A stretch of DNA of 64,000 nt, taken from NCBI RefSeq assembly GCF_019649055.1, contig NW_026570224.1, forward strand, positions 744,001 through 808,000, in the 5' to 3' direction. Positions 1 to 56,290 of this stretch are shown here, in pieces. Position 1 is the stretch's first letter. Each line of letters starts with the position of its first letter. The translations under genes were made by a program, and so were the position numbers. Origin of the DNA: Paramacrobiotus metropolitanus (taxonomy: Eukaryota > Tardigrada > Eutardigrada > Parachela > Macrobiotidae). The notes below the pieces were generated by a model. The model was not told the DNA's origin, ran no database searches, and worked only from the letters and a program-made list of their open reading frames with translations.

Positions 1-897
1 TCCAGGGCATGAGAAGCACCGCTGGTCAAAATGACATCCTACAAAGAGAACAGTTAAAATCGCTGAAATGGCGTTCTGTACAGCATTTGTTAATTAGCGC
101 TGCGAGTATACAAAATGTGTAATACCTTGGCAGTCAAAGGTGATTCCGGCCGGGCGGTATATTTTGCAACAGCCTCTCTCGCCGACAAAATTCCTAAATA
201 TGAAAACTTTTGATCAGAGACATCACTAATCAACACTGATACACTTTATTTTTCGCAGAGATAGTACTGAACTGAGCTTGCTATTTCCAGAGAAAGTTTT
301 TAAAAGTTCATTCCATGTATTAGTGCATTCCTAGCATGTATTGTACACATTACTAAGTATGCTGACCTGTAGAAGGTGCGTAACCGTCAAACTTCTGCTC
401 TCTTGCAGCTTTGACGACAGCTTCTACCGCTTCCACTGGAGGACTGAAGTTCCCATAGGTAGTAGGATCCCCTGGTTTTTATGATTTTGTAAATTATAAA
501 CAATAAAATCATGCTAAATAATTTATTCGTAGAGATAAACTGGAAATGCTGTATCCTCGGAAATAGACGGAATGGCTATCCCAAATCGTAACTGGTTTCA
601 TATAACCTTTTAAGGGTGTACCTATTGATAAGGCAATCATTGGTTTTTCGGGATTAGGCGTTAGCTTCAAGCCGTCCACAATCTGCCGAATGGGGTTTAA
701 GGTATTTTTTGCCATATAGGAACTCTTAACGTTCCATGCGGTGCGCCCAGCCGTCGGGACGGCGCAGCACATATCGCTATCGTCATCTCGCGGTGAGCAT
801 GACTCGGCTGTACTCGGCACACCGTAATCGGAATCAACATCGTCAGTTGGCACGGAATTTCGTCTTCGTAAGCCAAACTCGTTCAGTTCCGGGCTTC
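1..897 (-). CDS. TAT: tyrosine aminotransferase, N-terminal part (gene continues past left edge)
   Basis: PLP-dependent enzyme that transaminates tyrosine with 2-oxoglutarate in the first step of tyrosine breakdown. Four exons are visible at 622-897, 367-471, 126-193 and <1-38, all with GT-AG borders and matching phase. They read [16 protein letters not shown], then [13 protein letters not shown], then [17 protein letters not shown], then [13 protein letters not shown]. This matches the vertebrate TAT order ([57 protein letters not shown]). The PLP lysine and the C-terminal half lie outside the window. The start is uncertain. The first ATG in the exon is at 772, just before the conserved WNVKSS, but the frame stays open to an acceptor-like TTTTAG at 898-903, so an upstream exon may exist. 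Identity is sure; the 5' end is not. Confidence 0.9.
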
Positions 898-910
898 CTA
901 AAACGTGACC

Positions 911-1372
911 TTATGATAAGTTCAGCAGTCTTCGCAGTACCGTATTAACTCCTACAATTCCAGCAGACAAAGCTGGAGAATCGTGAAGGCTACCGCCACT
1001 GAGCAATACTAAATTAACATTCAGATACTAAAATTAGTTAATAACAGGATGCCTATAATAAAGAGGGTTCACAAAAAATGACTATAATTATAATAAACTA
1101 GGGTAGAAAGGGATGCCCATATTAGCGTCCTAAAAACCAGAAAAGGATGCCTATAACGGTGTGTTTTCTGCATAGCATCGACTTAGGGTACCTGCATTCA
1201 GTGGGAAAGGCTCAGAATTTGTTTCCGGGAGACTTGTCGCCCTGCTCGTCAGACACTTAGTCGTATGCATGCTATGGCCATTCTCCATGGTACCATTGCA
1301 TAACATCACATTTGCCCGCATCCGGTCAAAATATTCCGTCTGATGCTGGCGAACACCGAAAGTTACGTTTTC
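911..1372 (-). CDS. two putative exons directly upstream of TAT, unknown protein
   Basis: Exon 1192-1372 has an acceptor CGCCAG and a donor GCAG|GTACCC. It joins in phase to exon 911-1008, which follows TTTAG and ends in TAA only about 14 bp before the TAT exon acceptor. The joined reading includes FGVRQHQTEYFDRM, then VLLSGGSLHDSPALSAGIVG and TVLRRLLNLS-stop. I recognise no family. It could be the 3' end of a separate gene packed against TAT. Alternatively, an internal donor (GGCG|GTAGCC) would splice in phase into the TAT exon, making this a TAT N-terminal extension. No start codon was identified. Coding potential is inferred from the open frame and splice signals only. Confidence 0.3.
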
Positions 1373-1399
1373 CTGGCGCTCCATATTACCACGCGCTAT

Positions 1400-4243
1400 A
1401 ACGCTTCAATGGAGCTGGGTTGACCAGACTGAAAATATTGATTATCATAAGGTCAATTACTACAACTACGAAAATTTTTATCTTTAAGTAGCAAACCTGT
1501 AAGTCACAGCGCTGTAAACTATTTTGTTTACCATTTTGGGGGACAGCACGCCATGTACTGCTTAAAATAGTGTTACAAACTGATATCAAATTGAAACCGT
1601 TAAGATTTTTAAGCGTTGTTTATCGTATGAGAACGAAGGCAGTTGCTTAACGTGGAAACAATCAAAATTTTAATCTTACATAAAAAAGGAATTTCCAAAC
1701 GTCTAGCCAAAAAAATTGTATAACAGTTGACCCAGCTGAACGTATAGATTGATTTGGTGTAGATCAAAATTATAACATCCAAAACTATGTCACGTAAGGA
1801 CATCCAAATAAAACCAGCCAGTGACCTTTGGCACCATCATAGTTATTTCAACTCAAATTTCGGTAAATTTAGAGGTGTCTGCTGGTATAATATTTCTGCT
1901 ATACCGTATACGCAACAATGTGCATATGAAATCTAATTTAGTTACGCCAAATAAATAACCAAAGCAGCAACGAAATTATTATTGCCAGATCAAAGATGGC
2001 TCGAAAACCCTACTAATTTCAAGAATACCTGGCCTGCAAAAAATAGCTGTTTCCAGCATAACATTATTTACAACCCAAATACAACCTTTTGAAATAAAAA
2101 AACTTACAGGGATGAATCCAAAGTAGCGGCAATTCGATTTAATCGAGTGACTTACAACAAGTAAGTGTTAGGCTGACTGCGTTACAAAATAATAATAATA
2201 ATAAAAATAGCGATATGGTGCAAGGCAGACAGAATCTTCAGCGATAAACCGTTGAGACATAACTCGCGCACTACCGTCCATCGTACGTAACGCCAGATAC
2301 TCCAACAACTTAATTGCACATATAATTAAATAAAAAGACAACGCATGATTGTGAGGAAACTAATAAAAAATACAATTTGAATTAGTGGACAATTACAGTA
2401 AAAGCGTTTAGAGTCGTTTGTAGCAGTAGTGTGTATTTTCAAAAATGATAACTCAAATGACAAGTCCAAAATGAAGTCTGGTTTATATTTACCCTACGTA
2501 TATAATAATGTATGCACAATAAAGTTAGTGGTAATTAATCATACTATGCCGAACGGTTAATTCGAGTCGCTGATATTATCTAACAAATCGGACATCCCAG
2601 ATGGACAAAGTTGGGCGGCGTTTCGTAGGTCCCGAAACATAAACCAGGGGGTGTGAGCGAAAACATCACCTGCGCAAATCTGGCCATTTCCGGTAGCACT
2701 TTCTGTTTGGACTTACAGTTTCGTTTTATGGAATTATTTGCGTGCTCGCTAAGCACGCTTATGCAGTTTGTTATTTGCAATAGTGCACAGAATTGTTTTC
2801 CACGAATTTTATCACACGAAATCAAATGACAAACTGATGTGGTTGATAACATCACCAAATCAGCAAACTAACGTCGATATCTATCGCGCACATAACGGAT
2901 TATCGGTACAATTAGAGCGGAAAATCTGTGCTAGAAAGTAACAAGAAAATGTATGGTGATCCTTGGAAAGATGATAAAATATGTTAGTTGCAAACCGATG
3001 CATTGAATTCGAATAATTTTTAAGGAATCCAGTGACTGCACACACTCACAAAAAGTGCTCGTATATTAGTATTCTGGCATCAGTTATTTGATTTTCAATC
3101 GGGCGCCTTTTACGATACTTGGTACAAAGTATTTTTGCAAATAATTCCCATAAACATAAACAAGAAGTTAAAGTTTTTTCATAAGCATAATCACGTACAA
3201 TTTTCTAGGTTTCCAAAATTGTTTACTGTTTCTATGTACCAATAACTTATCGGCATGAATAAATAACTTGCACGCAAACCTATCCAATTATACATTAGAA
3301 ACACGGTATTATTCTTTCTTCTGACAATAAATTATTTCAAAATCTGCTGGTTGTATTTCTAATCTCTACAGATACCACGAAAACCTACAGTAATTAAATG
3401 TATGAAACAATAAAACCTGCACTACCAAATTTCTAAATGCTATAATTTTTTAGATGGTTTTACACATATTTTAAGCCATAAAACTTTTGAAGTCTACCTG
3501 TCTAAATAGGTTACCAACTTACTGCTCCTGCGGATTGTGTTAATCGTAAACAGCAATTACAATTTACAACTGATGCCGGCACGATTATAGCGGCATGATG
3601 ATTTTTTGAAGGCGGCAAGATACTAAACAGTACCCTGTGGGCGGTATGTAGTACACCGCAGGTTTATTAATAATAATAAAATTAATATAGTATTATAATT
3701 TATAGACATGTTTTCTTACGAATACTATGTATGTAAGAAATAGTAGTGGAAATTAAATTAATTGGTGCTAAATATTATGTTATAAATATATAAATATGTT
3801 ATTTAACTATTTATGAGACTTACGCAAATATGTTATTTGACTTACGCAGGAGCAAGCAGGAACACGTAAGTAATAATAAAAGACTTGGCTCTATCAGTCA
3901 CTCTCTGTGACTCTCACAATGATTTTATTCAGTTTTATATCAAACGCAATTTCTGTTGATACATAATACCGCAACACTGTATCGGCTAGAATAGGCAGAA
4001 CGATAAGCGGATGACACCTGTTGCACTTGCCTGGAGTAAAACTCACTGTAAAAGGTACTTACCTTTGACAAGATTGAGTGCGGCACTACTGCGCAATCTG
4101 CAAATGTTCACGGGCCAGTCACCTGCAGCAAACGGTACCGACACGACGAAGCTGCAACACTCTTGTTTTGTTGTCATATTTCACAAAGCGTGCGCATCTG
4201 TTCCTAAATTAGCTATTAATTAGTGGACAACGCCTTCGTCAGG
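1400..4243. other. intergenic spacer, no gene recognised
   Basis: AT-rich DNA with only short open frames and no family resemblance. It holds a short AAT microsatellite near 2190-2206 and a second AT-rich stretch at 3668-3710. Near 3793-3850 the phrase ATGTTATTT...ACTTACGCA occurs twice in direct orientation. A 10-bp inverted pair (TGCTCCTGCG) lies at about 3522 and 3847. The 3' end of this stretch is presumably the promoter of the ACSF2 gene at 4244. Confidence 0.5.
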
Positions 4244-7200
4244 ATGCCAATATTACGATTGCAAGCGCTGTACTCGTTGAATTTTCCAAAAATATCCCGA
4301 CTACTCACTCATCCTGCACGATGCAACTATCCTGCGCAGAGGTACCCAAACATTTGCACCTGACATCTTTCCTAACATGCCTAACGAAGTTGTCACGGCC
4401 TGATTAGAGCACTGCACATTGTCATACCTGGGAACGGTCCTTCGTGGCCGGAAACCCATCTGACGGAAAGCTACATTCACAATCCGTCACAAATCCCCTT
4501 CCTGTCGACCACTTTGGGTCGTCTCATTGAATACCAGGCGCGGACCATTGGAGATCGCGTGGGCTTCGTCGTGGCGTTTCAGAACATCCGCAAGACGTAT
4601 GCGCAGTTCAGCCAGGACGCCAGCGATCTGGCCAACGGACTGGTTAGTTTGGGACTGCAGCCTGGAGATAGGATCGGTAAGAATGGACGGACTAGAATGG
4701 ATTTGTCCGTTTTAGTCGGTTTTGCAATGCATCTCCTATGCGTTGGAAAATTTCTAAAGCAATCAGTCGCAAATTCGTAGTTTTATGAAATTCGTTCGCG
4801 CACTAACGACTGGTAGCTGTAGCACGGTATTCTACTACTATTTTTGTAACGGAAATATTTGAACTTGACAAGTACAGCTGCTAATATTTGCATACTGACA
4901 ACACGGGAAAAGATACGTACAGAAAACTACACAGTGATGTACATCACCTCTAAATTTTATCTCTACTCTAGTGTGAAAGAAAATGATACAGCGAAACTTG
5001 ACTGCAGTGTAAATTTGTAAATATAGGCTGGTTGCAATGACCGTCCATTCTGGACACCACTTTATTTAAAATACGAGTACCTATATAAATTTTCCTTGGC
5101 CAGTTTCTTGAGCACGTGTCTAATTTTTCGTTGTTGCGTTAGGCATTTGGGGTACAAATTCCTATGAATGGATGGTAATATTTTTTGCCGCATCAAAAGC
5201 AGGACTGATTCTGGTGAATGTTAATCCGGCATACAAAGTCCCGGAACTGGAATACTGCTTAAACAAAGTACAGATGAAAGCCATCATTGCAGCCGAGGGT
5301 GTCGGACCGTTGAATTACTACGACTACTTCCAAAAATTGCATCCAGAAATTCATAACAGCGCTCCGGGAAACCTGCAGTCAACGAGGTCACATATAAAGC
5401 GCTTTTAAAACGGTTCATATATTGCACTAATGGTAAAAGGAGTGTATTGTGGCGTTGCTTTTTACAGACTTCCACATCTGAAGCATATAATCATGCTTAC
5501 TAAAACGCCGGAAAAATTTCCGGGAACTTATTCGTACGATGCCGTTGTGAGCATGAAACGCCAGGATAACGTTCGCGAAGTGGAAAAGCGAACAAAACTA
5601 CTCCAGTCAGATGACGCATTTAACATCCAGTTTACCTCGGGAACAACGGGAACGCCAAAAGGCGCGTCGTTGTCGTCTTTTGGCATCATTAACGCCGCGT
5701 ATTTCTGTGGTCATCGATTAGGTGCTATGACTAAAGTATGCGCTTAGTTTGGTTTACAGCTATAATTTTGCTTAATTTATTTCGTGTTTAAACTAGCTTT
5801 TATAGCGGGAATGCGTAGTAAAACTATATGTATGACCTTTCAGACCAAAGCAATGGTCGTTCCTTTGCCGCTTTTCCATATCTTTGGATGTGTGGGAAAC
5901 CTGCTGATATCGTGTATTTTTGGAATGAAATGCGTACTCCCGTCGCCGCGGTTTGAACCGGAAGCTGTTTTCAAAGCCATACAAGACGAAGAATGCCAAA
6001 GCATTTCTGGTTAGCGAGTCTACACTTTACAGCATTGCTGCTTGGTGTGAAAAAATCAGTGCTGCCGACAGTTTTTGGTTTTATATTTCTTCTGTTGCAA
6101 GATTTGTGCGTATACTTTTGGCATTTTTCAGCCGTTCCGACCATGTTCCGAGATTTGGTCAATCATCCAAATTTGGCAAATTACAATTTATCTTCCCTGA
6201 ATGTTGCGTTGATGGGTGGCGCTCCATGTCCACCGGAACTGTTGAAGGCCCTGAACGAGAAACTCGGGATAAAGCAAGTGGCAGTAAGTTAGCACTCGTA
6301 TTCCATTTCTCACGTATATCACAACAAATTTTACAACGCAGGTAAAAAGCAGTAGACCAAAAAAGCAATAATAGCATAGCTGTTTAGGCCGGATATGGAG
6401 CAACCGAGCAGAGTGTGGCGACGTTTTTCGGAATTCTTGGCGATCCTGCTGAAATTTCTACGACAACAACCGGATATCCTCTGTCTCATGTTGAAGTGCG
6501 TAATTGACCTTCAGAAATATATCTCTAATTTGAAATAAATTCAAGCTGTTAGTTTCATAAACTGGGCTGATCTGTGAGAAGTTTTGCAGCATTTGATATG
6601 CAGGCAAAAGTGATAGATGTGGACGGCAGAATAGTGCCAATCGGGGAAAAAGGTGAATTATGCACACGCAGCTTTGGAACGATGCTTGGCTATTGGGATG
6701 AAGAAGATAAGACAAGGGAGATTATTGGGCCTGATCGGTGGATGAAAACAGGGTATGCGGCAAGATTTTCCGGTCTGCTACAGAACTGTCATCTGCGCCC
6801 TTTATCTCTCAGAATTGCTGTAGTAGAAATTTTGCAATTTCTCAGTGATTCGGCGAAAACATTTGCAATCGTTTTCACAGCGACCTGGCTAAGTTAACGG
6901 AAAAAGGATACCTGAAAATTGTCGGGCGCGCAAAAGATATGGTAGTTCGGGGTGGTGAGAACGTCTATCCGGTGGAAATTGAAAATGTCCTGTTAGAGCA
7001 TGAACACGTACTGGATGTGCACATTCACGGTGTGCCGGATGACCGACTGGGAGAAGAGATTTGTGCATGGATTCGCCTACACGATCATGCGGAAATGATC
7101 AAAGCGCGTGATGAACTGGAAACTGCTTTGACAGAATTTGTGCGCAAAAAGGTCCGACAAATATCTAAAATTAATTACAAGGAATTTTTAGTTTTGTGTT

Positions 7201-12015: not shown

Positions 12016-13388
12016 ATGAAGGCGACAGTAGCTAACAGCGTTGTTGCATTGGTTTTGTATGCCATCCTCGGTAAGCAGTGACTATTGCGGTTTCCCACGT
12101 TTACCAACAGCAATGCAAAATTAAAGTGTTTTCATCTGTTTACACTTTTGTTACAGATTGTTTACAACTGGTGAGCGCCCAAACATATTATCTGTGCAAT
12201 GGAGTTTACTACACTTACGCCTATCCCGGCTGCACCTATTCCACAACATCGACCAGCACGGCAACCCAGTACCTGTGCAACGGAGTCCTGTACACCTATC
12301 CGTTCTCTGGCTGCACCTATCCTACAACAAGCACCACCTCCACAGTGCAGTTTGTCTGCAACGGAGTAACTTCAACAACTCCAAACACCCTGTGTAAGCA
12401 CCGCCGCCAGCTCACCATTATCATTGCTGTGACCTTAATAGTGTATTCGCGTATACGCAATAGGTACATATCCGAATGCGCCCGTCAACAATGTCTACAC
12501 CGGCGTCCTCACTAGCGGCACCACCGGTACAACCACCGCCTACGTCTGCAATAACATTATCACCACCACCCCGAGTGCCGCTTGCTACTTCCTGACACCG
12601 CCCGTCAACGGTCTCTCCACCGGTACACCGACGACGAACACCCCAGGTGCCACGTTCACCTGTAACGGTGCTACCACGACGACGCCCAACCCGGCTTGTA
12701 TCTACCAGACAACACCGACCGGTACGGTGTATAACGGCTTCCTAACGGCCGGTGTACAGTACCAATGCGGCGGCACAACATCAGCCACTTACAACCCAGC
12801 ATGTACCTACAACACTGCTCCGAATAACAACATTTTGGTCGGCACTCTCGGCAATAACCAACCGACATACACCTTTTTGTGCAACGGGCAGACGACCACT
12901 ACCTACAACTCCTTATGTACTTATCCCAATGCAGCCGTCAACAACCAGTTCACCGGGGTCACCGCTACCGGAACTACCACAAGCACCGTGCAGTTTTCGT
13001 GTAACGGAGCAATTTCGACACTGCCTAATCCGGCGTGTCAGTATTTGACAGCAGCGGTTAACAATGTATTCTATGGAACCACTACGACCACCACAAGCAC
13101 CACCGGAACACAGTATCTGTGCAACGGTGTCCTTTACAGCTATGCTTATTCGGGATGTAAGTGAATTAGTGAACAAAGTTCTTTTCAGTATGATAGTAGC
13201 CACAATTTATATTTTATTTACTTAAAAGTTATTGTTGTTAACTCTGGTAATAAGATATCTGCTTTTCTACTAATTTAGGCACCTATCCGACAACCACCAC
13301 CAGCACCACTGGAACGCAATATTTATGCAATGGCATCCTCTACAGCTATGCTTATCCTGGATGCACATACTCAGGATTGACAGGATAA
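12016..13388 (+). CDS. secreted Thr/Tyr-rich protein with ten C-x11-C-x-[YF] repeats
   Basis: Four exons (12016-12070, 12157-12393, 12464-13156, 13279-13388) join in phase for 364 residues. Exon 1 starts MKATVANSVVALVLYAILG, a signal peptide, so secretion is expected. The mature part has ten copies of a block of two cysteines separated by exactly 11 residues and followed by x-[YF]. Examples are CNGVYYTYAYPGCTY, CNGVTSTTPNTLCTY, CGGTTSATYNPACTY and CNGILYSYAYPGCTY. The outer blocks are aromatic (YYTYAYPG) and the inner ones Thr/Asn-rich. Linkers repeat a VNN-x(4)-G theme and are Thr-rich, so O-glycosylation is plausible. All three introns are phase 1, and two split the second cysteine codon (T|GY). 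It is head-to-tail with a paralogue at 13906. No known family is recognised; an extracellular matrix, cuticle or gland role is an inference. Confidence 0.85.
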
Positions 13389-13905
13389 AGCATTTCCTGA
13401 GGATTACCCAGACTCTCACAAGGAACCCTTTCAATTTCCTGCTCATAGTATTTAGTATTTTCCAGTCAACTAGCAATAACTTTGCTTGTGTACAAAATGT
13501 ATGTCTTACTGCATGCAACCGAAATCGCCACTGTGTAACATATATTGTAAAAATGTACAAATATACGTATCTGTGTGCTATACAGTAGACTGGAAACACC
13601 CCTTGCATGCCCTACATCTGCGATAATCAATTTTGCCAGTCTTCTGTTCAATATTTTTCGCTTACCTCGTGCATAATTTGCGAACTGGTCCGCTGCATCT
13701 CAATTTCGCCAATTAAGGAATATATAACTCCGAGATGATGCATAAAGATATTTCAGACGCTATAAAGTACTGCTGATTTCAATGTGTTTCGCCCAAGGTT
13801 CAATATAGCAGCAAAACAGACATATCAGAAACAGGGCATCCAGTCCAAAATTTTTTGTTATCATTCTAAATAACGGGAATTTGGCACCTTATACTTCTAT
13901 TAAGA
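13389..13905. other. spacer between the two Cys-repeat paralogues
   Basis: 517 bp without an open frame of interest. TATATAAC at 13721-13728, about 180 bp before the next ATG, is a candidate TATA element for the second paralogue. Confidence 0.45.
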
Positions 13906-15108
13906 ATGCATTTTGTGTCCGCCCTGTTAGTTGTGGCTGCTTTTGGTGAGTCTGCCTTACAGCATTTTTGCAAATATTTATGGTTAACTGCAAGGCATCG
14001 TAACTAGTTGCGCAGTCTGACCTTTCTCCGTACGTGACTATAAAAAAGCACTGCATAAATAATAATTACTCATAACTCATAAGTATTTTGTAGTTATTTA
14101 TCAAAATATATTATCTAACAAATCATTATTTATTGGCAGGGCATTTTTTTTGTATCGAAGCCCAACAATACCTCTGCAACGGAGTTTATTACACCTATCC
14201 TTTTGCCGGTTGCACATACAACACCTTTAATGCCGCTCAAACGCAGTATTTATGCAATGGTTTCTATTACACTTATCCATATCCGGGGTGTACTTACAAT
14301 AATCTCGCTAATGCGGCTGCTAACACGGGAGTAGTATCCAACAATAACAATTATCGTTGTAATGGAGTCGTTTATAACTTTGCTTTTGGAGGATGCACTT
14401 ATCCCGCTGCCCCGACTAATGGGATTTTCGAAGGAACGGTACTACCTCCCGCGACTACCGCTCCTCCGATTCAATATTCGTGTAACGGAGTGCTCTACAG
14501 TACGTATATACCAATTTTCTCGTAATTTTTATATTTGAAAACCACAAAAAAATTAAGCGGCATGATCGACCCACGGATCTGGAAAGTTGTGAAATTATAT
14601 TTACTTTTGCTATCAGTTTACTGAAGCCGTTTTTGTCAATACTCATACGTCGTTAACTACCCTGGCCAGTGGCCAGCAACATTTTTCTGCCGTGGGCTGT
14701 TTGCAACCTTTTCATAAATTTGAAAATTATAAAGTAAGGGTGTTGGAAAAATTTAGGATTAAATTATAAAACTGCGCTGCATTCGAAAGCCAAACCGATT
14801 ACTTCACATCCACCACTAATTAAGCATGGGAATCAGTACTACATTAATTATTGTGGTTTCGTTTGAATATTGCAGCTTTCGCTTTTTCTGGATGTACATA
14901 CTCAAATCCGGTAAACGGTATTGCCACCGGGACTCCTGTTGCAGCAGTCGCGAACACCGCCGCTGCCAGTTCCTACCTATGCAACGGTGTCTATTACACC
15001 TATCCCTATCCTGGATGCACTTACGGCAATAATTTCAATACTGGATCCAGATATCTATGCAATGGTGTTTATTATACTTATCCATATCCCGGTTGTACCT
15101 ACGGTTAG
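13906..15108 (+). CDS. secreted Tyr-rich protein with six C-x11-C-x-Y repeats (paralogue)
   Basis: Three exons (13906-13945, 14140-14499, 14876-15108) join in phase for 210 residues. Exon 1 encodes MHFVSALLVVAAFG, a signal peptide with the same phase-1 first intron as its neighbour. Six blocks keep two cysteines 11 residues apart: CNGVYYTYPFAGCTY, CNGFYYTYPYPGCTY, CNGVVYNFAFGGCTY, CNGVLYTFAFSGCTY (across intron 2), and CNGVYYTYPYPGCTY twice at the C-terminus. It is more uniformly aromatic than the 12016 gene and has shorter linkers (one reads PVNGIATGTP, as in the neighbour). The tandem position, same strand, shared motif and shared intron phase show local duplication. Function is unknown; an extracellular structural role is inferred. 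Confidence 0.87.
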
Positions 15109-22337: not shown

Positions 22338-23798
22338 ATGACAACATCATTACAGAATTTACCCAGACTTTATCTTCTCATGGCTGGATTAATTCCTGTG
22401 GTATGGTTGCAAAAAGTATCTCCTGCTATAAATACAAAATCAACTACCATCATCCAGTCGCCAACGTTGAAAATTCAGCCCTTTTCCGCTGCTACATCTT
22501 ACGGTATGTGATTACAAATTTATAATAATATTTGATAATATACGTTTGACATATCATTTGTGAATGATCAGGTCTCATTGGCTCTCACAGTTTAATGGCC
22601 CGGTTTACATTGGTTAATTTGGTTATTATGATCTATGATTTTATTACTGAACCTACTAGATCCAAAAATCGCCGATCTGAAACTCTACGATTTTTCGTCG
22701 GAAGCCAACAGGCGGAAGCCACAGTTATACAATAAGCGTTATACTGAAATGGAAAAGCCGTACTATACAAAAACCTACGAAGGCAAAGGACCCGAAAAAG
22801 TCAGCTACGAGATAAAAGTGTATATTCCCAAGCATTTCGACCTGCCACCGGCATACCCGGCTACTGGCGCACCTGACGCCGGTCAGATCAACAAGTCAGC
22901 CTACGTCGCTCCATATGAGATCCCGGCTACGGAGCCGTATCCCGGCTATAACTACGAAGCCTACCCCATACCCTCACCTCCCAAATACGACTCCAAAATG
23001 CCCTATGGAAAACCATACTACCCGGACGAAAAGGCCATGTACGAGCCCAAACCGGCGTACTATCCGAATTACTACGAATCAAAACCGGTCGTGTATGAAA
23101 AGCCAATTTCCTACGATATTAAAGCTCCAGTGTATGAAAAGCCGATGGCATACAACTATGAGAAACCAGTGTATGAGAAGAAACCGGTAAAATACGTCCC
23201 GGAATACGAGATGAAATATAATGAAATCCCGTACCAAGAACCATACCCCAAAACGTATCCAGAACCAGTATACGAGCAAAAAACACCGCGCTACCCGGAA
23301 TATACACCATCTTATGAGCCGAAGTACGAAGTCAAACCGAAGTATGTGGAGCCGTACGCCCCAGCCTATGAACACAAACCGGTCAAATATGAGACCAACG
23401 CATACGAGCAGAAACCGCCAAAACCGGAAGTCACTTATTCTCCGGCAAACAGTTATGAACCGAAAGGTTACAAAGAACCCAGCTATATACCATACCAGAA
23501 ACCTGCGTATCCAGAAAAGGCAGGACATTACGACAAATCCAAGCCAATGCAGTATGATTTTGCGAAATCGCCACCGAGCTATGAGCAGTCTTATTATCCC
23601 GCAGCATCTCCGCCAATGTATTATCAGCCACCTTATCAACCTATGTATTATTACTATTATCCTCCAAAGCCTTACGAGATGCCCTCACCGCCGCCCTACT
23701 ACCCTCCAGCACCGTCCACATATCAGTATTACGCCACTTCCGTACCGCCGGCAACCACGCACTCGACGTATGGCTACGCCGCTTATTCCAATTACTAG
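22338..23798 (+). CDS. secreted Tyr/Pro/Lys-rich low-complexity repeat protein
   Basis: Two exons (22338-22503, 22660-23798) join in phase for 434 residues. The N-terminus carries a hydrophobic stretch LYLLMAGLIPVVWL, consistent with a signal peptide. From about residue 100 the protein is built of irregular repeats such as YEPKPAYYPNYYESKP, VYEKPISYD, VYEKPMAYNYEKP and YEQKPPKPE, dominated by Tyr, Pro, Lys and Glu. There are no cysteines in the repeat zone. The C-terminus becomes Pro/Tyr with little charge (MYYQPPYQPMYYYYYPPKPY). Such composition is seen in cuticular, eggshell and adhesive proteins that are cross-linked through tyrosine; the role here is inferred from composition. No homologue is recognised. 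A TATA box lies just upstream. Confidence 0.85.
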
Positions 23799-54490: not shown

Positions 54491-56290
54491 CTAATAAGCC
54501 GAGTAGGATTGGTAGCTGGATGGCTTATAATCATCATAACCATACGACGGCTTGGAGTATCCATACGATGGCTCTTGATAGCCATAAGATTTCTGTTCAT
54601 AACCATATGACTTCTGTTCGTAGCTGGGAGCGGAGTAGGATTTCTGTTCGTAACCGTAGCTGGGATAGGACTTTTGTTCATAACCATAGCTGGGATAGGA
54701 CTTCTGCTCGTAACCATAGTTCGGATAAGAGTATGATTTCTGCTCATACCCATAGCTGGGAGCCTGGTAGGATTTCTGTTCGTAACCGTAGCTAGGATAA
54801 GATGGCTTGTAGTCATAGCTGGAATATCCGTAGTTGTTGTCGTAAGACTTTCCGTCTGCAACACAGACATCGGTGACCTTTGCCACAGATATGACCCGCA
54901 GCGGATTCGGAAGTAATGCAAAGGTGGCAATACAAGTAGCAGGCTGAGAATAATAATTGTCTTACAGCTATCGTATGATGGTTTGTAGGAATCGTAAGAT
55001 GGCTTGTAGTCATAAGCCGGAGCCTTGTAATCGTAGGAAGGAGCCTTGTATTCGTAAGAAGGCGCTTTGTAGTCATAGGAAGGCTTCTGGTATCCATCTG
55101 TAAAAGAATGTTTATACGACTATATACAGAAGACCGTAAACAAGTTTTATACTAAATTTTAATTCAAATCAGTATGCTAGTTACTTACAGCTAGGATAAG
55201 ACGGCTTGTAGTTATCATACGATTGATAACCGTAGCTTTCGTAGGACGGCTTTTGATAACCATCTTTAAAATAAAAGGCAGATAGAATAGTGTTTTATGT
55301 GCGCACAATGTCGTGATCAGGTCACAGGTGTTCTTATCGGCAAACTTTGAAAATTGTCCAATATTAATTCTAATTCTGCAGTAATGTACTTACAGTTAGG
55401 TTGTTGGTATCCATAGCTGGGCTTGTTGTCATAAGAATCGTACGATCGGCCATCTGCAAAATATGCTGCTTATACATGCAGATCTGATGGCGGTTCATGG
55501 TGCAGTGTACAATGAATTCTTACATGGAGCAGGGGCATAACCATATTCTTGTTTGTATCCATAGTCCTGCTTGTAGCCATAGGCGGGAGCTTCGTAGCCA
55601 CCATATCCGTAGTTATCATAGCCATACTGAGAATCGTACGATGATCCAGGGTAGTGTGAAGGATAACCTCCATATCTACAACGAACAAGCAACAACCTTC
55701 ATTGTTTGCTCAATTGACCATCAAGCCATACGCGCGACGACGAAGCGGTCATCGCTTTCTAATAGGCTATTAAGTGACCTTTACTGATCAAACACACTAT
55801 CCAGTCAGCAGCTAAATAATCCAATAGATTCAAGCACCACATGGTTTAAGAGTTGTTTACCCGTAATAAGGTTTCTTTGGCTTTGGCTTATCATAGCTCT
55901 TTTGGTAACCGGAAGCTGCCGGCTGCATGTCTTCGGCCGGCATCCCGACCTCCTTTGAACCGGCTACCGTGGCATTCTTTGGTTGTTCCGGTTTCTGACA
56001 AGCGGCTAGTCCAAAAAGAAGCACAGCCAGGCATAATCCAACCTGGAATAATATCTAACTTAATACAAAGTAAAATTTATTCCTTTTTGGTTACGTATAA
56101 ATTCCTCTTCCACTGAAATAGCGATCGCGGCTCATAGATTGACTGTCGTATAGCTAAATTTATACAATCCCAATTCTATGGAAAAACAACGAGTCGCAAA
56201 TAATCCAGATTAGAGGAAGGTCACGGGATACTACATGGGGCAAGCTAAAAGGACAGGCTACGTGCACATCAACGCTACCTGTTGATGCAT
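54491..56290 (-). CDS. secreted Tyr-rich protein of duplicated phase-1 exons (YGYEQKSY repeats)
   Basis: Seven exons join in phase: 56279-56290 (MHQQ), 55861-56042, 55524-55675, 55394-55453, 55189-55263, 54966-55097 and 54491-54855, about 325 residues. Exon 2 continues VGLCLAVLLFGLAACQKPEQ, a signal peptide, then a short linker. The rest is Tyr-rich: YGGYPSHYPGSSYDSQYGY, YGYKQDYGYKQEYGYAPAP, DGYQKPSYDYKAPSYEYKAP, and a terminal block of YGYEQKSY units (about eight). From exon 4 on, each exon starts with AT-GG(A/C/T) after a phase-1 intron and each but the last ends in T, so they are interchangeable modules. No cysteines occur in the repeats. A tyrosine-crosslinked extracellular structural or adhesive role is inferred. 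The MHQQ exon is supported by being the first ATG after the TATA box. Confidence 0.82.

What the first reader, a model, noticed from the sequence alone, without database searches (positions are those of the whole stretch)
12016..15108. Tandem pair of secreted proteins built on an invariant C-x11-C-x-[YF] module
Sixteen blocks across two adjacent genes all keep exactly 11 residues between two cysteines, then x and an aromatic residue (for example CNGVYYTYPYPGCTY). The residues between the cysteines vary from aromatic (YYTYPYP) to Thr/Asn/Pro-rich. Constant spacing with variable filling suggests that each block is a small disulfide-closed unit. Linkers repeat a VNN...G theme. I know no domain family with this pattern. 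It may be a lineage-specific extracellular family, perhaps cuticle, eggshell or gland secretion.
Basis: partly seen in the sequence, partly recalled or inferred. Interest (0 to 1): 0.75.

Follow-up and report, generated by a model that had tools for sequence, protein, structure and literature searches.

The report
Uncharged tardigrade proteins of cysteine loops
Two neighbouring genes, in what is very probably a water bear genome, encode secreted-type proteins made of repeated two-cysteine loops and almost no charged residues; they belong to a family of about nine genes that I found described nowhere and that most likely supplies building material for the animal's cuticle or eggshell.

Summary
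Two same-strand genes (12016-13388 and 13906-15108) carry 10 and 6 blocks. All 16 fit C-x11-C-x-[YF], and no other spacing of 5-19 followed by x-[YF] occurs in the mature proteins. Three blocks span introns, and GT-AG splicing restores the spacing exactly. The assembly resembles that of the tardigrade Paramacrobiotus metropolitanus TYO in size and longest contig. Seven more gene models, some partial, lie at five other loci. Across 42 blocks the motif extends to [YF]-x-C-[NG]-[GN]-x9-C-x-[YF].

Three features were missed. The mature gene-1 protein (338 residues) has no Asp, Glu, Lys, Arg or His. Loops fall into two discrete classes, aromatic and Thr/Asn/Pro-rich. Gene 1 is ordered YY-TTTTTT-YY. 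Two paralogue pairs show purifying selection (dN/dS 0.46 and 0.23), so the loops are not hypervariable.

Pfam, NCBIfam and PDB gave nothing beyond chance-level scores. The likeliest role is a disulfide-looped structural protein of cuticle or eggshell. Tissue, disulfides and cross-links are inferred; no expression data or other tardigrade genomes were available, and the structure models have low confidence.

The parts
12016..12070 (+). gene 1 exon 1, start codon and hydrophobic signal-peptide core
   Evidence: ATG, GT-AG phase-1 intron 12071-12156
12157..12393 (+). gene 1 exon 2: end of signal peptide, blocks 1-2 and most of block 3
12464..13156 (+). gene 1 exon 3: end of block 3, blocks 4-8 and most of block 9; no D/E/K/R
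13279..13388 (+). gene 1 exon 4: end of block 9, block 10, stop
13906..13945 (+). gene 2 exon 1: start and signal-peptide core
   Evidence: phase-1 intron 13946-14139
14140..14499 (+). gene 2 exon 2: blocks 1-3 and first half of block 4
14876..15108 (+). gene 2 exon 3: second half of block 4, blocks 5-6, stop
12195..12320 (+). gene 1 blocks 1-2 (aromatic class)
12357..13044 (+). gene 1 blocks 3-8 (Thr/Asn/Pro class), block-to-block pitch 35-40 residues; the span includes intron 12394-12463
13120..13370 (+). gene 1 blocks 9-10 (aromatic class); the span includes intron 13157-13278
14175..15102 (+). gene 2 blocks 1-6 (all aromatic class); the span includes intron 14500-14875

Best explanation
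The pair belongs to a family of about nine tardigrade genes encoding secreted structural proteins of an extracellular layer, most likely cuticle (perhaps the mouth-pharynx lining) or eggshell. Shown from sequence: signal-like first exon; repeats of [YF]-x-C-[NG]-[GN]-x9-C-x-[YF]; nearly no charged residues; purifying selection in two paralogue pairs; two loop classes, with aromatic blocks at both ends and Thr-rich blocks in the middle in gene 1 and in the C164 paralogue. Inferred: in the secretory pathway the two cysteines of each block pair up, closing a small hairpin with an aromatic residue on each side. The uncharged chain, held soluble until release, condenses outside the cell. The Tyr-rich end blocks associate or are oxidatively cross-linked, while the Thr-rich middle is a hydrated, possibly O-glycosylated spacer: a block copolymer. 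Lysine-based cross-linking cannot act on the mature gene-1 chain, which has no lysine.
For: Invariant spacing in 16 of 16 blocks; 20 and 12 cysteines in the mature proteins, every one in a block. Aromatic residue two before the first cysteine in 40 of 40 full-length family blocks. Mature gene 1: 0 charged residues in 338; gene 2: 3 in 189; the only 4 charge-free stretches of 60 or more residues in the window's six frames all lie in these genes, while 13 other ORFs that I picked from the window's list have 18-36% charged residues. dN/dS 0.46 (bootstrap 0.32-0.67) for C85a/C55 and 0.23 (0.14-0.38) for C164/C9 (exon 1 left out of the second pair); cysteine columns identical in 14 of 15 (the exception is an extra cysteine near the N-terminus of C55) and 12 of 12. 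Signal-like exon before a phase-1 intron in 8 of 9 models (for C164, C9 and C85b I chose one of two candidates). Precedents and partners from papers, passages only: the C. [quoted passage not shown] chorion-peroxidase-like proteins were detected in the tardigrade Milnesium (PMC3459984), so an enzyme type that could cross-link tyrosines exists in the phylum (that link is my inference).
Against: No expression, proteomic or localisation data for this family. No other tardigrade genome could be searched, so its age is unknown. The AlphaFold model of exon 3 alone is useless (mean pLDDT 38.7), and the single-unit model is weak (58.9). C85a and C55 have no aromatic-class blocks in the part modelled and carry extra tail cysteines, and gene 2 has no Thr-class block, so the 'aromatic ends, Thr-rich middle' order does not hold for all members. 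C9's first block reads C-x14-C. Signal peptides were judged by eye and hydropathy only.
Confidence: 0.5

Rival explanations
1. A gland secretion rather than a solid layer: a mucus-like or adhesive protein (egg glue, salivary or claw-gland product) whose Thr-rich stretches are O-glycosylated and whose cysteine loops and tyrosines give cohesion.
For: Signal-like exons; 31% Thr+Ser in gene 1 and 34% in the C164 paralogue; no N-glycosylation sequon in gene 1 or gene 2 (shuffle means 9.7 and 3.4).
Against: Gene 2 has only 14% Thr+Ser and is wholly aromatic-class; no tissue data either way. Much of the sequon depletion comes from asparagines fixed by the motifs (13 non-motif Asn in gene 1, about 4 sequons expected).
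Confidence: 0.25
2. A highly reduced chitin-binding domain derived from peritrophin-A (CBM14), binding chitin through its aromatic residues.
For: Resemblance (first recalled) of Y-x-C-N-G to the Y-x-x-C-x-x-G stretch of CBM14, and the weak profile alignment does fall there; the genome has at least 126 CBM14 matches.
Against: No Pfam match to CBM14 for either protein or any of 40 blocks; profile comparison with 6 CBM14 domains of this genome gives probability 1.2% and score 10.8, equalled by 1 of 10 column shuffles; two cysteines instead of six.
Confidence: 0.06
3. A defence or toxin-like family with constant cysteine framework and hypervariable loops.
For: Constant spacing with different fillings; neighbouring gene pairs at three contigs.
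Against: dN/dS below 1 in both paralogue pairs measured, with block cores no faster than linkers (0.37 vs 0.48; 0.22 vs 0.24); fillings are two classes, not a spectrum; almost no charge.
Confidence: 0.04
4. A soluble protectant, for example an ice-binding or desiccation-related secreted protein with Thr-rich flat faces.
For: Thr-rich disulfide repeats occur in some insect antifreeze proteins (recalled, not tested); P. metropolitanus is reported to be highly desiccation-tolerant (PMC11191345 discussion).
Against: 20 of 42 blocks are aromatic-class; no PDB sequence match for gene 1 or for the block profile beyond chance. Regular TxT spacing was not tested.
Confidence: 0.05
5. An artefact: chance ORFs or decayed gene copies.
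For: C9's first block needs another acceptor and then reads C-x14-C; C147b's first exon was not found.
Against: Purifying selection in two pairs, exact splicing across blocks, and blocks at six loci.
Confidence: 0.02

Closest known systems
Charge-depleted, cysteine-containing low-complexity proteins of the C. elegans pharyngeal cuticle (PMC9629831; passages read)
   Same: secreted; strong bias against charged residues; cysteine-rich proteins deposited in new cuticle, disulfides in the cuticle
   Different: the passages describe disordered low-complexity families; here there is a strict two-cysteine module at fixed spacing; no sequence relation was tested
Peritrophin-A chitin-binding domain, CBM14 (PF01607)
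   Same: short cysteine module with aromatic residues near a Cys and a Gly
   Different: six cysteines and 53 profile positions against two cysteines and a 17-residue core; no Pfam hit; profile comparison at chance level
R&R cuticle proteins (PF00379) and nematode cuticle collagens (PF01484)
   Same: proposed tissue only
   Different: neither gave a match in this genome (the tool's controls did not ring, so absence is not proved), and neither matched these proteins
Tyrosine-rich, disulfide or dityrosine cross-linked eggshell and silk-like block proteins (recalled, not searched)
   Same: repetitive, Tyr-rich, end and middle blocks
   Different: no sequence relation tested; the module here matched nothing in the libraries searched

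Membership tests
CBM14 / peritrophin-A | six cysteines in a conserved pattern | tested here: not met
   two cysteines per block at x11 in 16 of 16 window blocks
CBM14 / peritrophin-A | profile match | tested here: not met
   no Pfam hit up to E 10 for 40 of 40 blocks; hhalign probability 1.2%, score equalled by 1 of 10 column shuffles
R&R cuticle protein (PF00379) | profile match | tested here: not met
   Pfam listed only a sub-threshold Minor_capsid_1 score for gene 1 and nothing for gene 2
Nematode cuticle collagen (PF01484) | N-terminal domain profile | tested here: not met
   no such Pfam hit
Secreted charge-depleted structural matrix protein (a kind, not a homology family) | signal peptide | tested here: inconclusive
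   hydrophobic first exon in 8 of 9 models by inspection or hydropathy; no dedicated predictor
Secreted charge-depleted structural matrix protein (a kind, not a homology family) | near-absence of charged residues | tested here: met
   0 of 338 and 3 of 189 mature residues
Secreted charge-depleted structural matrix protein (a kind, not a homology family) | deposited in cuticle or eggshell | not testable with these tools
   no expression or localisation data
Secreted charge-depleted structural matrix protein (a kind, not a homology family) | intra-block disulfides and tyrosine cross-links | not testable with these tools
   inferred from spacing and composition

The most novel reading that the evidence does not exclude
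A new two-cysteine beta-hairpin module that tardigrades multiplied into charge-free block copolymers (aromatic, cross-linking ends; Thr-rich spacer middles) forming a major part of their cuticle or eggshell. Lacking lysine and arginine, the mature gene-1 type would give no tryptic peptides and so would be missed by trypsin-based proteomics.
Probability: 0.3. Interest if true: 0.72.

Novelty: new variant of a known kind. Interest (0 to 1): 0.5.

Why it matters
Little is in the papers that I could search on the structural proteins of tardigrade cuticle or eggshell: a Milnesium proteome study (passages, PMC3459984) mentions vitelline-membrane proteins and chorion-peroxidase-like enzymes, an Acutuncus study (passages, PMC10520964) an enriched Pfam entry 'Pupal cuticle protein C1', and a word search of the Hypsibius/Ramazzottius genome paper found no mention of cuticle or eggshell (PMC5531438). 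This family is a concrete, testable candidate set. Its composition also predicts a blind spot: the mature gene-1 protein has no trypsin site, and the Milnesium study digested with trypsin. The module would be a compact natural example of an uncharged, disulfide-looped block polymer.

Tried and rejected
Relation to CBM14: tested by Pfam and by hhalign with shuffle controls, rejected. PHROG 35500 (gene 2 E 4.1e-5, gene 1 E 0.039, no single stretch passing on its own, 38-position profile of unknown function) was read as a summed short repeat match without meaning. Pfam Minor_capsid_1 (gene 1, E 0.097, below cut-off) and NCBIfam TranRegCyprAlk (gene 1, E 0.75) were read as chance. PDB profile hits at E 1.4 and 1.8 (PP1 regulatory subunit 3B, Evasin P1243) cover 11-12 residues in their best stretch and were read as chance; gene 2 was not searched alone against PDB. 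C63 matches were rejected: they come from a tandem repeat open in several frames. C141, C1 and C87 matches (E 0.05-0.13, with stops) were not followed up. A lipocalin search meant to identify the organism gave three matches; the best is an ordinary fatty-acid-binding protein, which told nothing. Prokaryotic and viral collections, searched with gene 1 exon 3: 50 and 6 pattern matches, none a relative. No fold search was run, because both models are of low confidence. Paper searches listed nothing on this family among the rows shown (7 of 7 and 8 of 254).

Count notes: one search collected blocks with a pattern that already requires [NG][GN] after the first cysteine, 11-residue spacing and the final aromatic. 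The full list of cysteine spacings in the same call shows no other x11 pair in the models, save one in gene 1 that starts in the signal peptide, so none was lost by the pattern. C9's first block (C-x14-C-x-Y under the one in-frame acceptor that I found) is outside the 42, as are the tail cysteines of C85a, C55 and C147a. Position counts use 40 of 42 rows; two shorter C-terminal rows were dropped. C85a, C55, C85b and C147b are partial models. The CBM14 profile holds 6 of 10 fetched domains; 4 were dropped because the stretch that I cut did not read as a domain.

Full report
What is in the sequence. Gene 1 has exons 12016-12070, 12157-12393, 12464-13156 and 13279-13388 (364 residues); gene 2 has exons 13906-13945, 14140-14499 and 14876-15108 (210 residues). 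All five introns are GT-AG and phase 1. The proteins hold 10 and 6 blocks, 16 of 16 with the stated pattern, and apart from one cysteine in each signal-peptide region every cysteine lies in a block. No other spacing between 5 and 19 residues followed by x-[YF] occurs in the mature proteins; 5,000 shuffles per protein gave at most 3 matches against 10 and 6 observed. Three blocks are split by introns, and joining at the splice sites restores exactly 11 residues, which is good evidence for the models in the absence of transcripts.

Organism. The window is contig C4:744001-808000 of a 169.8-Mb assembly of 533 contigs; contig C1 has 4,484,719 bases and contig C533 10,170. The published assembly of the tardigrade Paramacrobiotus sp. 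TYO has 170,483,395 bases in 684 scaffolds, the longest 4,484,941 (PMC8277472, passages), and a later paper speaks of the P. metropolitanus TYO strain with a 170-Mbp genome (PMC11191345, passages and sections 15 and 20). The near-agreement (total 0.4% smaller, longest contig 222 bases shorter) makes this identification very likely if contigs under about 10 kb were left out, which I assume; it was not confirmed by a marker gene.

The family. Protein searches of the genome with four different queries and one chimeric query gave no further convincing locus after the second: C4 (the two window genes), C85 (two models), C55, C164, C9 and C147 (two models), nine models at six loci, four of them partial. 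Remaining matches were weak and were rejected or not followed up. The tool's counts are lower bounds. Models from these loci bring the total to 42 blocks. Eight of nine models have a hydrophobic first exon ending in phase 1 (for three of them one of two candidates was chosen); C147b's first exon was not found. Among 40 full-length blocks the residue two before the first cysteine is aromatic in 40, Asn follows the cysteine in 37, and Gly follows that in 37. The motif is therefore [YF]-x-C-[NG]-[GN]-x9-C-x-[YF], a nearly symmetric arrangement of aromatic residues about the cysteine pair.

Two classes of loop. Counting aromatic residues in the nine inner loop positions gives 22 blocks with 0-1, 20 with 3-5 and none with 2. 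Gene 1 is ordered YY-TTTTTT-YY, the C164 gene Y-TTT-YY, the C9 gene TTT-YY after an altered first block, gene 2 is all Y, and the modelled parts of C85a and C55 are all T. In gene 1 the T blocks are separated by long linkers and the Y pairs by short ones; four of its six long linkers carry VN[NG]; in gene 2 three of five linkers between Y blocks are long.

Composition. The mature gene 1 protein (338 residues, cut assumed after residue 26) has no Asp, Glu, Lys, Arg or His; gene 2 has 3 charged residues in 189; 13 other ORFs picked from the window's list have 18-36%. The part of the C164 gene read (213 residues) has no charged residue; the corresponding C9 part has 4, and the C85a and C55 models 4 and 6. 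N-glycosylation sequons number 0 in gene 1 against a shuffle mean of 9.7, but many asparagines sit in fixed motifs, so the depletion beyond motif constraint is modest (13 non-motif Asn, about 4 expected).

Selection. C85a against C55: 68% identity, dN/dS 0.46 (bootstrap 0.32-0.67). C164 against C9: 87% identity, dN/dS 0.23 (0.14-0.38). Block cores are not faster than linkers (0.37 vs 0.48; 0.22 vs 0.24). These genes are thus very likely functional, and the loops are not a hypervariable, toxin-like surface. Selection on the two window genes themselves was not measured. The exception in pattern is C9's first block, which reads C-x14-C-x-Y under the in-frame acceptor found.

Known families. Pfam, PHROGs and NCBIfam gave only sub-threshold or, I judge, meaningless scores for the two proteins; none of 40 blocks hits Pfam; PDB has no match for gene 1 and only two chance-level matches for the block profile. 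Prokaryotic and viral collections gave no relative of gene 1 exon 3. The genome has at least 126 CBM14 chitin-binding matches, so the same tool does find a short cysteine domain here; against six of those domains the block profile scores 10.8, equalled by one of ten column shuffles, whereas blocks of the window against blocks of the other loci reach 98.9% probability. R&R cuticle proteins and nematode cuticle collagens gave no match, but the controls of those searches did not ring.

Structure. Exon 3 alone gave a useless model (mean pLDDT 38.7). One unit with 13 rows taken from the window gave 58.9, with short strands C-Y-F, F-T-C, A-T-T and C-I-Y, the last three joined by N-G and by a stretch with P-N-P-A. 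This suggests a small beta-hairpin or meander, but the confidence is too low to claim the fold or the disulfide.

How it may work. Shown: secreted-type first exon, invariant cysteine pairs, near-absence of charge, two block classes, purifying selection in two paralogue pairs. Inferred: each pair forms a disulfide; the uncharged chains condense outside the cell; tyrosine-rich blocks provide cohesion or cross-links, while Thr-rich blocks serve as spacers; the site is cuticle or eggshell. A precedent for the material, not a relative, is the C. [quoted passage not shown] Chorion-peroxidase-like proteins were detected in Milnesium (PMC3459984, passages).

In print. Searches for tardigrade eggshell, chorion or cuticle proteins and for three peptides of the family listed no description of it. 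Of the papers listed by these and by one search I opened passages of PMC6925440, PMC9629831, PMC3459984, PMC5531438 and PMC10520964, besides the two on P. metropolitanus; PMC3459984 and PMC10520964 mention vitelline-membrane proteins, chorion-peroxidase-like proteins and one cuticle Pfam entry in tardigrades, nothing like this module. The other listings were judged by title and the start of the abstract. This covers one open-access library only.

Verdict. A real family of secreted-type repeat proteins that I found described nowhere, possibly tardigrade-restricted; the structural role is the best guess, at about one in two. It is a new family of a familiar kind (lineage-specific extracellular material), with an unusual, nearly charge-free composition.

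Noticed in passing
window 22632-23798 (+): Long Tyr/Pro/Lys-rich ORF with repeated YEP/YEK-type stretches and no Pfam match; possibly another extracellular structural protein.
   Followed up: partly
window 54491-54961 (-): Tyr-rich ORF with SYGYEQKSY-type repeats and no Pfam match.
   Followed up: partly
introns 12394-12463, 13157-13278, 14500-14875: The 3 of 5 introns of the two genes that follow the signal region all fall inside a block and are phase 1. By eye, introns of C164, C9, C147a, C147b and C85b also fall inside blocks, whereas the second intron of C85a and C55 lies in the tail cysteines. Symmetric phase-1 exons could explain how blocks multiplied.
   Followed up: partly
G000 C9, L018 about 2882-2962 on the reverse strand: First block of the C9 gene has lost the acceptor context seen in C164 and reads C-x14-C-x-Y under an alternative in-frame acceptor.
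   Followed up: partly
G000 genome-wide; nearest C4:735439-735585: At least 126 CBM14 chitin-binding matches, one 8.4 kb left of the window, but no match to R&R cuticle proteins.
   Followed up: no
L024 (C63), 772-4359: A 3.6-kb tandem repeat with several frames open for most of its length, one reading as APAPNTPAPGLA repeats.
   Followed up: no
L015 (C85), 1092-1903: An astacin-like metalloprotease reading frame (zinc-binding HExxHxxGFxHE stretch; motif recalled, not searched) about 1.1 kb upstream of the C85a gene.
   Followed up: no
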